Assembly (NCBI GenBank): GCA_947624295.1
Contig: CANQJV010000007.1
Coordinates: forward strand, 1 to 64,000
DNA from: an uncultured Ruminococcus sp.
Lineage (GTDB): Bacteria; Bacillota; Clostridia; Oscillospirales; Ruminococcaceae
Length of the DNA stretch: 64,000 bases
Direction: 5' to 3'
The first letter of the stretch is position 1; every line of letters begins with the position of its first letter. The position numbers were made by a program, and so were the translations under genes. This document shows positions 1,037 to 26,228 of the stretch, piece by piece. The notes under the pieces are model-generated. The model was not told the DNA's origin. It did not search any database and worked only from the letters and a program-made list of their open reading frames with translations.

Positions 1037-3352
1037 ATGTCAAAAAATATAATTAAATACAAATCACCTGCACAAAATCTTGATGAGGCTATTCTGACAG
1101 GCAATGGCAATATCATTGGAATGATTTACGGCAAGCCTGCTGACGAAACTATAAAACTTAATCTTGATAGTTTCTGGTCGGGACGACGGCAAGAGTCAAG
1201 CAATGATTATTTCTGTAACGGTATGGAAGAAGTACGGGATTTTGTGGATAACGGCGATATTGTTTCGGCTGAAGCAAAAACTGTTGATATTTTGCAGAGG
1301 ACATCTGCCAATATGCAATGGTGTGTGCCGTTCCCGGAATTCCGCATTGACTGCATTTTCAGCGGTAAAGCTAAAAATTACGCACGTTGTCTTGACCTTG
1401 AAACTTCTGTTGCGAGTGTCTGCTTTGATGCCGATGAAAAGCATTTTCAGCGGGATTATATCTGTACAGGCGATGACGGTATTGTTATCAATTTCTGTTG
1501 CGATGAGGACGAAAGTATATCGTTTGATGCGTGGCTTGAAAGCAAAATGAAGATATACAGTACAGCTTGTATTGACAGAACAGACACACTCATATGCACG
1601 GGAAGTGCATACGATAAGAACGAAATCAATTTTGTTGCTTGTATTGCTGTAAAAGCAACAGGCGGTGAAGTTAAAATTGTGGAGAACAAAATTTCCGTAA
1701 GAAATGCCGATTCTGTTATGCTTGTATTAAATGCCGGAAGTGATGTCAATACAGAAAATATTCAGGAAACTGTCGGCATAGTCAGGGAACATATTGAAGA
1801 TACTATGGGTATGTGTTTTAACAAAATAGCTGAGAATTATATTTCGTGGTATCAGAACATATACAACAGGGTTGAGTTTAGTCTTGAGGACAACAGCAAG
1901 GAAAATCTTGATATAATGGCGACTGATGAGAGATTACTCCGCTTGCAGGGCGACAAAATGGACAGCAAGGAATGTACACGCCTTATCAATGACAACAAAC
2001 TTGTGGAACTTTATTTCAATTTTGGGCGATACCTGATGATTACACTTGGCACGGCAACTTACCCTATGAATTTATGCAGTTTCTGGAATGACAGCGAAGA
2101 TTCGCATTACAGGTATCGTATTACAGGGAATTTGCAAATGTGTTACTGGGCAGCTGATGTTTGCGGAATAGTTGAATGCCTGAATCCGTTATTTGATTTT
2201 ATAAAACGTATCGCAATCACAGGCAGGGAAACTGCTAAAGAAATGTACGGTGTAAATGACGGCAGTGTGTGTCATACGGAAACAGATTTATGGGGTAATT
2301 CCGCTCCGCAAGGCTATTCGCCTGATTCATTGTGGTGTATGAGCCTCGCATGGCTTGCAATCCATTTCTTTGAACATTATGAGTATATAATGGACAGGGA
2401 TTTTCTGGAGGACAAATATCTCACAATGAGAAGTGCAGCAATGTTTTTTGTAAATTATCTTACAAAAGACGATAATGGTAAACTTATTGTTTCGCCGTCT
2501 GTTTCCCCGACAAGCGCATATATTGCGGAAAATGACTCAAAAGTACATCTCTGTAAAAGTTCATCAGTTGATTCACAAATTTTAAGAGTATTGTTTGATG
2601 ATATAATCAAATCTTGTGATATAATTGGTTTTGATAATGAATTTGCAGAAGTACTTAAACCGCTTTTAGCTTGCCTTCCTGAAATAGAAACAGGGAAATA
2701 CGGGCAAATTAAAGAATGGAACGAGGATTTTGATGAGGCTGAATCTGTCAATAAAATCCCGTATCATCTTTTTGCGCTCTATCCTGCTGACCTCATAACT
2801 CCTGCTAAAACTCCTAAACTTGCCGATTCCGCAAGAACTACGCTTATAAGGCGGTTTATTCAGGAAAATCTTGATAAAGGTTTTGGTTGTGCGTGGATTG
2901 CCAATATGTGGGCAAGGCTCTATGACGGGAATATGGTCTATGAAAATATAAAAAATATGCTTGTCAATTCAACTGCTCCGAACCTCGTGAATACTTACCC
3001 TGATTTGTCTATTGACGCAAATATGGGCGTTGTATCAGCAATTGCCGGTGCTGTTCTTCAGTGTACAGGCGGTGAAATTGTTCTTCTTCCTGCGCTTCCG
3101 CACGAGTGGTCAAACGGTTATGTCCGTGGATTCAGAGCTAAAGGCGGTTTTGAAGTAAGTATGGAATGGGCAGACGGTAAATTGAAAAGTGCCGAAATCA
3201 AGTCGAATGCAGGCGAAGAATGCCATTTGCGTTTAGTAGACAATATCGCTGTAAGCATTATCAGCGATGACGAAGATATAAACCCTCGAATTGAAAACGG
3301 TGCTGTTGTGTTCAATACAACGGCAGGAATAACTTATACAATAAGGTGTTGA
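1037..3352 (+). CDS. Glycoside hydrolase family 95-like protein (alpha-L-fucosidase type), cytoplasmic
   Basis: The 771 residues have the usual length and order of GH95: an N-terminal beta domain opening 'AILTGNGNIIGMIYGKP...LNLDSFWSGR', an (alpha/alpha)6 core with 'ETDLWGNSAPQG', a 'SIDANMG' segment carrying the likely catalytic Asp, and a C-terminal beta domain ('LLPALPHEW'). There is no signal peptide, so it should act on imported oligosaccharides. The family removes alpha-L-fucose or alpha-L-galactose by inversion. The segment that in family members normally contains closely spaced Asn residues before QMNYW reads TGNLQMCYW here, so substrate specificity is open. The next gene starts 2 bases after its stop, suggesting one transcript with the mannanase. 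Confidence 0.8.
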   Translation: MSKNIIKYKSPAQNLDEAILTGNGNIIGMIYGKPADETIKLNLDSFWSGRRQESSNDYFCNGMEEVRDFVDNGDIVSAEAKTVDILQRTSANMQWCVPFPEFRIDCIFSGKAKNYARCLDLETSVASVCFDADEKHFQRDYICTGDDGIVINFCCDEDESISFDAWLESKMKIYSTACIDRTDTLICTGSAYDKNEINFVACIAVKATGGEVKIVENKISVRNADSVMLVLNAGSDVNTENIQETVGIVREHIEDTMGMCFNKIAENYISWYQNIYNRVEFSLEDNSKENLDIMATDERLLRLQGDKMDSKECTRLINDNKLVELYFNFGRYLMITLGTATYPMNLCSFWNDSEDSHYRYRITGNLQMCYWAADVCGIVECLNPLFDFIKRIAITGRETAKEMYGVNDGSVCHTETDLWGNSAPQGYSPDSLWCMSLAWLAIHFFEHYEYIMDRDFLEDKYLTMRSAAMFFVNYLTKDDNGKLIVSPSVSPTSAYIAENDSKVHLCKSSSVDSQILRVLFDDIIKSCDIIGFDNEFAEVLKPLLACLPEIETGKYGQIKEWNEDFDEAESVNKIPYHLFALYPADLITPAKTPKLADSARTTLIRRFIQENLDKGFGCAWIANMWARLYDGNMVYENIKNMLVNSTAPNLVNTYPDLSIDANMGVVSAIAGAVLQCTGGEIVLLPALPHEWSNGYVRGFRAKGGFEVSMEWADGKLKSAEIKSNAGEECHLRLVDNIAVSIISDDEDINPRIENGAVVFNTTAGITYTIRC

Positions 3353-13117: not shown

Positions 13118-13144
13118 TTAGCACTCTATGTCTTTGAGTGCTAA
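13118..13144 (-). promoter_or_regulatory. CIRCE operator (HrcA binding site)
   Basis: TTAGCACTC (13118-13126), nine spacer bases and GAGTGCTAA (13136-13144) match the CIRCE consensus perfectly. It overlaps the expected transcription start of hrcA, immediately downstream of the -10 box, the classic repressing position. Confidence 0.98.
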
Positions 13145-13285: not shown

Positions 13286-13314
13286 TTGACTATGTACAAA
13301 ATATGTGATACAAT
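13286..13314 (+). promoter_or_regulatory. Sigma-A promoter of glmM
   Basis: TTGACT (13286-13291) and TACAAT (13309-13314) are separated by 17 bases. Initiation near 13321 would give glmM an untranslated leader of about 250 nt. The promoter is divergent from the hrcA promoter. Confidence 0.8.
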
Positions 13315-13373: not shown

Positions 13374-13533
13374 TATAGTAAGTCTACTTGGAAATCGGAC
13401 AAAAGTAACTGAATAAAAATTTTTCATAGCAAGGCGGAGGAGGAAAGCGTGCTGTCGCACGGTGACGACGACAACGTAGCTATGGGAAATTTTTATCAGT
13501 GAACTTGTTTGATTTTCAAGTAGGGTTACTATA
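13374..13533 (+). ncRNA. Long hairpin in the glmM 5' leader (candidate cis-regulatory RNA or palindromic repeat element)
   Basis: The left arm (13374-13430) and right arm (13479-13533) are complementary over most of their length: about 44 Watson-Crick pairs, six G-U pairs, one mismatch, a short internal loop and one bulge. All six wobbles pair only if the RNA is read in the glmM direction. The 48-nt apical region (13431-13478) is GC-rich, unlike the arms, and contains a small hairpin CGTGC-TGTC-GCACG (13448-13461) and a GGAGGAGG sequence. It lies between the glmM promoter and start codon. No known riboswitch class is recognised. A MITE-like repeat is the main alternative. Confidence 0.65.
13449..13502 (+). 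CDS. Candidate 17-residue leader peptide in the glmM leader
   Basis: GTG at 13449 follows an exact GGAGGAGG (13436-13443) by five bases. The frame reads MLSHGDDDNVAMGNFYQ and then TGA. The ribosome site lies in the apical loop of the long hairpin and the frame runs into its right arm, so translation would unfold the stem. This supports a translation-coupled switch but there is no conservation evidence; the frame may be fortuitous. Confidence 0.3.
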   Translation: MLSHGDDDNVAMGNFYQ

Positions 13534-25900: not shown

Positions 25901-26228
25901 TGTTGAGTACAGTTTTTGATTGTACTGACTGCGAAGATATGCAATGAAGCGGAAGGTTGCTGTCGGTATGGCAGGGAATTTCCGTGGAGTATGTCCGATT
26001 TTCAAACCGGGCGACAGGGATAACGGACACAGTTTGTGGTTTTTAATGGTAATATGCTGAGCATCATTATCTCAATTTGTGTCTGATTGTCTGTACTTGC
26101 CCGAAAAAATAAATTTTTCGGGTGTTTTTTATTTTAATTTAATTTTTAATCTGAAAGTACAGACGGTACACGTGGAGGCGTGTGTATCTCATCAGCGTCC
26201 CCGAAAATTTTTCAAGGAGGCGAAAAAA
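25901..26228 (+). ncRNA. Structured leader of the ribosomal protein operon (candidate S10/L4-type leader)
   Basis: The 5' part contains short complementary pairs: GTACA/TGTAC (25917-25925 region), TGTCGG with CGACA, and TGTCCG with CGGACA. The order of the last two is interleaved, suggesting a pseudoknot. A terminator hairpin follows at 26100-26122. TGTCTGTACTT before it can pair with AAAGTACAGAC after it. GTACACG/CGTGTGTA forms another hairpin near 26167. Position and structure fit an autogenous ribosomal-protein leader as known upstream of rpsJ in Clostridia. Family membership was not tested. Confidence 0.6.
26100..26130 (+). terminator. Intrinsic terminator (attenuator) inside the S10 operon leader
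   Basis: CCCGAAAAA (26100-26108) pairs with TTTTTCGGG (26114-26122) and is followed by TGTTTTTTATTTT. It lies 107 bases upstream of rpsJ, so it must be bypassed for ribosomal protein synthesis. CCCCGAAAA at 26199-26207 repeats the 5' arm and could pair with the 3' arm instead. Confidence 0.75.

What the first reader, a model, noticed from the sequence alone, without database searches (positions are those of the whole stretch)
13374..13533. A ~57-bp imperfect palindrome in the glmM leader, with wobble pairs that favour an RNA on the glmM strand
Seen: the arms 13374-13430 and 13479-13533 pair over about 50 positions. Of seven single-base differences between the arms, six are G-U pairs when read in the glmM direction; on the other strand these would be C-A mismatches. 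That asymmetry is what selection on an RNA hairpin would leave, not what a DNA palindrome decaying at random would. The hairpin lies in a ~250-nt leader between a good promoter and glmM. The apical part is GC-rich and contains GGAGGAGG and a 14-nt sub-hairpin. Inference: a cis-regulatory element for amino-sugar/wall precursor supply. Alternative: a MITE-like repeat copied elsewhere in the genome.
Basis: partly seen in the sequence, partly recalled or inferred. Interest (0 to 1): 0.8.

Follow-up and report, generated by a model that had tools for sequence, protein, structure and literature searches.

The report
Mobile hairpin with conserved folded core
The hairpin in front of glmM is one copy of a small jumping element, not a glmM switch, but the element carries a folded core that is kept from gut Ruminococcus relatives to soil Streptomyces while the rest of the element changes, which points to an unrecognised functional RNA (or single-stranded DNA) that travels on transposons.

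Summary
The palindrome is real: 13374-13533, 45 Watson-Crick and 6 G.U pairs. It is very unlikely to be a glmM regulator. The genome has 7 full copies (94-100% identical) beside different genes on both strands; 15 of 16 other glmM loci checked in the genus lack it, and one holds a different subfamily in reverse. It is a 160-bp TA-ended MITE; ends of this and related subfamilies resemble IS630-family ends in genus genomes.

Subfamilies with different arms and ends share one apical core, CAAGG-P2-GAAAG-P3-GUGA-P2'-RACGCAG. P2 changes sequence with compensation, alternating between Watson-Crick steps and tandem G.A. The core is found across the class (89 of 381 genomes), elsewhere in the phylum, and in Streptomyces. 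Rfam searches of the window and ten member loci gave no credible match to the core; ten paper searches surfaced no description.

Ordinary MITEs keep ends and lose middles; this family does the reverse. I conclude that an IS630-type MITE superfamily carries a selected single-strand fold, probably RNA. Mobility and fold are well supported; partner and benefit are unknown.

The parts
13374..13533 (+). whole element, 160 bp, ends TATAGTAA...TTACTATA; core strand = glmM strand
   Evidence: 7 full copies in the genome, same ends in 6 of 7 (one reads TTACTATG)
13374..13429 (+). 5' arm including the left terminal inverted repeat (about 13374-13401)
   Evidence: pairs with 13480-13533; first 28 nt 21/28 identical to an IS630-type element end in G027
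13430..13434 (+). CAAGG, 5' side of the basal internal loop; C13430 closes with G13479
   Evidence: invariant in 18 genus sequences and in 32 sequences of two phyla
13435..13442 (+). P2, 5' strand, CGGAGGAG (tandem-G.A type)
   Evidence: pairs with 13466-13473; Watson-Crick or tandem G.A in other members
13443..13447 (+). GAAAG, 5' side of the upper internal loop
   Evidence: invariant in the 18 genus sequences, varies in distant members
13448..13461 (+). P3 hairpin CGTGC-TGTC-GCACG
   Evidence: pairs in 89% of cells in 32 sequences, five of five pairs changed on both sides somewhere
13462..13465 (+). GTGA, 3' side of the upper internal loop
   Evidence: invariant in the 18 genus sequences
13466..13473 (+). 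P2', CGACGACA
13474..13479 (+). ACGTAG (family RACGCAG), 3' side of the basal internal loop
   Evidence: A, C and the last G invariant in 32 sequences
13480..13533 (+). 3' arm including the right terminal inverted repeat
13286..13314 (+). glmM promoter-like site into whose leader the element is inserted (host, not element)
   Evidence: TTGACT-17-TACAAT, kept in five relatives without the element

Best explanation
A non-autonomous transposable element (MITE). IS630-family (Tc1/mariner-type) DDE transposases, supplied in trans, recognise its terminal inverted repeats and insert it at TA-containing sites. Inside sits a conserved hairpin core that works as a folded single strand: a closing C-G pair, a basal internal loop CAAGG/RACGCAG, helix P2 (Watson-Crick or stacked tandem G.A), an upper loop GAAAG/GUGA and a small hairpin P3. 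The core was kept while the ends were replaced repeatedly to suit different transposases. Shown: dispersal, a family-wide fold, compensatory change, wobble bias on one strand, spread over the phylum and into Streptomyces. Inferred: IS630-type transposition; action as RNA when transcribed (about 0.6, against single-stranded DNA); recognition by a widely conserved host component such as ribosome, RNA polymerase or an RNase, so that insertions are tolerated or transcripts protected (about 0.35). The glmM copy is a chance insertion between promoter and ribosome-binding site. The confidence below is for MITE plus selected single-strand fold, not for the inferred partner.
For: Dispersed copies. Core shared by hairpins with different arms and ends. 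Pairing and covariation above shuffles and slid controls: 18 genus sequences 83.1% vs 58.0%, 0.678 vs 0.202; 32 sequences of two phyla 80.9% vs 54.2%, 0.659 vs 0.204, slid at most 0.212; 14 Streptomyces sequences found by BLAST, not by the model, 0.291 vs 0.142. Tandem G.A or Watson-Crick at P2 steps in 29 of 32 and 25 of 32. G.T over A.C in 63 vs 7 of 77, 50 vs 11 of 75 in the outer arm. MITE ends like IS630-type ends in four pairs. Filled and empty sites at two loci.
Against: IS630 DDE_3 is in 20 of 125 genus genomes, and elements are no commoner there (9 of 20) than elsewhere (52 of 105). A strict TA duplication is not established: at least six copies lack TA just outside the 3' end, and empty sites were too diverged to read. 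No expression data. Orientation to genes is random, which does not favour a role within neighbouring mRNAs. In 9 of 28 distant stretches, flanks included, the opposite strand folds slightly better.
Confidence: 0.8

Rival explanations
1. The selected fold is single-stranded DNA: the core strand, exposed during replication or transposition, is read by a transposase or host protein.
For: The pairing and wobble bias fit either molecule; tandem G.A is known in DNA hairpins (recalled); orientation to genes is random; head-to-head pairs and tandem copies occur (L354, L355, L368, L372, L369).
Against: The ends look like those of double-strand cut-and-paste IS630 elements; no single-strand (HUH) transposase was found beside copies, but none was searched for systematically.
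Confidence: 0.25
2. An ordinary MITE: the palindrome is a by-product of how it arose and the core is neutral.
For: Copies within a genome are near identical, so recent spread alone explains similarity inside one subfamily.
Against: It does not explain one core with unlike ends across a class and Streptomyces, compensatory P2 change or the one-strand wobble bias.
Confidence: 0.08
3. A dispersed transcription terminator or insulator placed at gene ends.
For: Of 14 annotated Streptomyces loci, 6 lie between convergent and 0 between divergent genes (incomplete gene tables, some loci not independent).
Against: Among 151 contexts, mostly of the window's phylum, convergent and divergent are equal, 26 and 25 (crude ORF calls). 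A terminator needs no conserved internal loops.
Confidence: 0.1
4. A cis-regulatory leader of glmM that senses amino-sugar or wall-precursor supply.
For: It lies between promoter and glmM on the mRNA strand; G066 has another superfamily member in its glmM leader.
Against: Six other full copies elsewhere; absent from 15 of 16 other glmM loci scanned; the G066 copy is reversed and of another subfamily.
Confidence: 0.03

Closest known systems
RUP, repeat unit of pneumococcus (IS630-Spn1-type MITE)
   Same: Short dispersed element with TIRs like those of an IS630 element, TA-containing targets and a tightly folded transcript (passages of PMC3049150, and PMC2229807)
   Different: RUP is 107 bp and known from pneumococcus and close relatives in those passages, which report no functional motif; here 160-281 bp, one conserved core over a class and Streptomyces, several unlike TIR sets
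REP elements (GTAG- and CGTC-tagged) and BIMEs
   Same: Dispersed hairpins over several phyla, often in head-to-head pairs (passages of PMC3733652)
   Different: 20-40 bp with an unpaired terminal tag; here long arms, TIRs and an internal conserved core
NEMIS/Correia, ERIC and similar MITEs
   Same: Palindromic MITEs of about 100-200 bp with TA at their termini; some transcripts cut by RNase III (passages of PMC2229807, and PMC10969869)
   Different: Described there in single genera or enterobacteria; no core shared between families with unlike ends is reported in the passages seen
Cis-regulatory leaders and riboswitches in Rfam 15
   Same: Structured RNA with conserved internal loops
   Different: No credible Rfam match to the core; copies are dispersed and not tied to one gene

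Membership tests
MITE (non-autonomous transposable element) | Short, non-coding, many near-identical dispersed copies with terminal inverted repeats | tested here: met
   7 full 160-bp copies on both strands, palindromic ends; other subfamilies likewise
MITE (non-autonomous transposable element) | Filled and empty sites | tested here: met
   Two sites with orthologous flanks and no element; glmM leaders without it
IS630/Tc1-mariner-type MITE | TA target-site duplication | tested here: inconclusive
   Ends begin and end with TA, but 3' flanks of at least six copies (L298, L299, L300, L303, L304, L307) lack a further TA, so the duplicated base pairs could not be placed
IS630/Tc1-mariner-type MITE | Terminal repeats shared with an autonomous IS630 element | tested here: met
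   24/26, 21/27, 19/26 and 21/28 identical letters, 0, 0, 1 and 0 of 20000 shuffles reach them; the pairs were picked by eye after the ends were seen and are between genomes; 3 of 12 IS630 loci gave no end pair
IS630/Tc1-mariner-type MITE | A matching transposase in the same genome | tested here: not met
   No DDE_3 hit in the own genome, which is 85% complete; no association in the genus (9 of 20 vs 52 of 105)
RUP | RUP sequence | not tested
   No RUP sequence was fetched
REP | 20-40 bp hairpin with GTAG or CGTC tag | tested here: not met
   160-281 bp; length and architecture differ
Known Rfam family | Covariance-model match at the gathering score | tested here: not met
   None over the core in the window or in ten member loci searched by E-value; in the window stretch six matches at E 2.2-10, all far below gathering scores
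glmM cis-regulatory leader | Conserved upstream of glmM in relatives | tested here: not met
   15 of 16 other glmM loci without a model match; the one match is reversed and of another subfamily

The most novel reading that the evidence does not exclude
A previously unnamed structured RNA family, conserved at least across Bacillota and Streptomyces, that persists by riding on IS630-type MITEs and changing carrier ends as transposases change: a bacterial counterpart of RNA-bearing short interspersed elements, whose fold contacts a universally conserved host machine.
Probability: 0.35. Interest if true: 0.92.

Novelty: new variant of a known kind. Interest (0 to 1): 0.76.

Why it matters
Bacterial MITEs are usually taken as decayed transposons with disposable middles. 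A MITE superfamily whose middle is the conserved part, with base-pair compensation across two phyla, implies selection on a folded strand and suggests a common partner. It makes testable what that partner is, and why some genomes hold dozens of copies without a visible transposase. It also supplies covariance models for annotating copies that otherwise look like leaders or sRNAs, as happened here at glmM.

Tried and rejected
glmM riboswitch or leader: rejected, with the G066 copy as the one result that leans towards it. Known Rfam RNA: none over the core. SRP-RNA (Alu-like) origin: suggested by a recalled 4.5S RNA stretch that resembles the core of L023; no SRP match in the Rfam calls, but L023 itself was not scanned; dropped. 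Kink-turn: bulge and G.A order do not fit (by eye). tRNA-like 3' end of long forms (GGGTTCGACTCCC): ARAGORN found no tRNA or tmRNA in 7 loci; it is part of the terminal repeat. Autonomous copy between the same lone ends in G000 and G064: no transposase recognised by eye in the ORF starts of 9 loci, no domain search. Phages: no BLAST match; viral contigs: 0 with one strict pattern; E. coli genomes: no match; core of L366 against plasmids: no match. Transposase gene beside the Streptomyces copy in L409: an open frame was listed; by eye not IS630; not pursued. A first wobble count used a filter that favoured G.T and let in false matches; it was discarded, which filters on identity alone. still holds one false row (L128) and one doubled row (L374); both are left out. 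An own sRNA promoter and orientation to replication were not tested.

Full report
What is there. The arms 13374-13430 and 13479-13533 pair with 45 Watson-Crick, 6 G.T and 1 A.C pairs, 3 other mismatches and 2 gaps. The glmM-strand RNA folds at -76.5 kcal/mol, z -11.7; the other strand at -53.0, z -9.5. The sighting and its strand asymmetry hold.

It is a dispersed element. A 186-base query gives 14 matches in the own genome, 7 of them full copies, four on one strand and three on the other, 94-100% identical over 160 bp. The ends are TATAGTAA...TTACTATA in 6 of 7 (one copy reads TTACTATG), and the nearest ORFs differ from copy to copy. L008 is a 65-bp internally deleted copy. In the genus 9 of 100 sampled genomes, own included, match the element.

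It is not specific to glmM. The five nearest glmM leaders (G065, G069, G091, G049, G105) keep the promoter and the ribosome-binding site and lack the element. Model R2 over 16 glmM loci of other genus genomes (of 124) finds nothing in 15. In one, G066 (L340:1379-1455), it finds a member about 70 nt upstream of glmM. That copy has other arms and the opposite orientation. It may be coincidence in a genome with at least 32 copies, or a preference for such leaders; it does not put the core on the glmM mRNA.

The unexpected part. Several genus matches covered only the middle of the query. They are other hairpins, with different arms and ends, that share the apical core. A degenerate apex pattern with one mismatch allowed occurs in 24 of 125 genus genomes, 24 times in the own genome; read backwards it gives 0 in every genome listed. 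One Gammaproteobacteria match lacks the rest of the core and looks like chance. General form: arm - CAAGG - P2 - GAAAG - P3 - GUGA - P2' - RACGCAG - arm. P2 is, for example, CGGAGGAG/CGACGACA, CGGACGAC/GGAGGACA, AAAACUUUU/AAAAGUUUG, AAAGGCUCC/GGAGGCUUG or CGAAAAAGU/ACUUUUUCA.

Fold statistics. On 18 diverse genus sequences 83.1% of cells pair against 58.0% in shuffles, and covariation is 0.678 against 0.202; slid controls reach at most 0.196. On 32 sequences of two phyla: 80.9% against 54.2%, 0.659 against 0.204, slid at most 0.212. Most of these sequences were collected with a pattern or model, which favours pairing. The 14 Streptomyces sequences came from BLAST with a core; they give 92.1% against 84.2% and 0.291 against 0.142, slid at most 0.088. 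In P2, one pair of neighbouring steps is Watson-Crick in 13 and tandem G.A in 16 of 32, the other 9 and 16 of 32. The pair between them is standard in 28 of 32, changing among G-C, A-U, C-G and G-U. This exchange is hard to explain without a folded single strand. In one search all 26 invariant columns lie in the core and none in the 12-nt arms.

Wobble bias. Of 181 distinct elements, 77 have arms under 70% identical (ungapped comparison). In these G.T outnumbers A.C 275 to 93: 63 elements against 7, with 7 ties. In arm positions more than 14 nt from the core, outside the search model, it is 168 to 77, and 50 elements against 11 with 14 ties, of 75 after dropping one false and one doubled row. 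Mutation biased by transcription could contribute, but the elements show no clear orientation to neighbouring genes: of 151, 39 ++, 31 --, 26 convergent, 25 divergent, 25 inside ORFs, 5 at edges, by crude ORF calls. Folding energy is a weaker guide: of 28 distant stretches with flanks the core strand folds better in 19.

Spread. Own genome included: model R1, built from genus sequences, reaches E<=1e-3 in 61 of 125 genus genomes and in 30 of 295 order genomes, 20 of 148 genera; E<=1e-4 in 32 of 391 class genomes, 24 of 223 genera, and 8 of 299 phylum genomes. Model R2, built partly from those finds, reaches E<=1e-4 in 89 of 381 class genomes, 58 of 218 genera; this is partly circular, and E-values of both models are rough. 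Distant members keep CAAGG...ACG.AG by eye with a few departures. BLAST of one such member against plasmids hit 5 records, all Streptomyces; a Streptomyces core then hit 21 records at 43 places, all Streptomyces. Model R1 finds only one of the first four Streptomyces loci (E 8e-4). Those elements are GC-rich hairpins of roughly 165 bp with other ends. No match in phages, E. coli genomes, plasmids with another core or, with one strict pattern, viral contigs.

Long form. In G388, G305, G155, G183 and G213 the repeated unit is about 268-285 bp: the same core and 3' arm plus about 118 nt on the 5' side with their own hairpins. TA-bounded ends are clear in G388 and G305; in the other three I could not place them.

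Mobiliser. Four IS630-type ends in genus genomes match MITE ends: 24/26 (G066 against G028), 21/27 (G017 against G066), 19/26 (G112 against own-genome L307) and 21/28 (G027 against the window copy), reached by 0, 0, 1 and 0 of 20000 shuffles. The pairs were picked by eye after the ends were seen, and they join different genomes. Against this, DDE_3 is found in 20 of 125 genus genomes; compared, 9 of these 20 and 52 of the 105 others carry elements. So the transposase need not be present now: copies may be relics of past bursts, it may lie in missing parts of incomplete genomes, or another enzyme acts. A target duplication could not be placed, because at least six copies lack TA outside the 3' end and the two empty sites are too diverged.

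Mechanism. Shown: mobile, folded, selected on one strand, carrier ends exchanged. Inferred: IS630-type transposition in trans; RNA rather than DNA; a host partner common to both phyla. Random orientation to genes argues that the fold does not simply work as part of neighbouring mRNAs.

Literature. Ten searches of the open PMC library listed no paper whose title or shown abstract describes this family; one search showed 15 of 60. I read passages only of PMC3049150, PMC10969869, PMC3733652 and PMC2229807. Subscription papers and preprints were not searchable, so an earlier description cannot be excluded. That 4.5S RNA, kink-turns, IS630's taste for TA and G.A pairs in DNA were considered rests on recall.

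Noticed in passing
13118-13144: CIRCE-like inverted repeat TTAGCACTC-N9-GAGTGCTAA in front of the hrcA-like gene that runs away from glmM (motif recalled).
   Followed up: no
25936-26017: S10-Clostridia ribosomal protein leader, Rfam RF03136, above its gathering score.
   Followed up: no
L340:1379-1455: A different subfamily of the same superfamily lies in reverse in the glmM leader of G066: second, independent insertion in this leader.
   Followed up: partly
G116, G043, G064, G018, G086: 35 to 39 model matches per genome (39 is the scoring ceiling) but no IS630 DDE_3 hit in the assembly; what moved them is unexplained.
   Followed up: no
L369:1136-1419: Three copies in tandem, 104 bp apart; head-to-head pairs in L354, L355, L368, L372 and L353.
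   Followed up: no
L267-L286, L325, L326: Long-form elements with an extra 118-nt 5' branch holding conserved blocks such as GCGYCAGC and AAAATC.
   Followed up: partly
L099:3079-3238: T-box match of 50.4 bits, below its gathering score of 93, begins inside the 3' arm of the element at about 2959-3121.
   Followed up: no
L128, L164: A 1.49-Mb contig labelled Alistipes carries typical Ruminococcus-type copies; the label may be wrong or the copies transferred.
   Followed up: no
G027 contig ends, e.g. C25, C43, C91: Many contigs start or stop at TATAGTTATCCTATTTG or TATAGTAATCCTATTTT, as if a high-copy repeat with similar ends broke the assembly.
   Followed up: no
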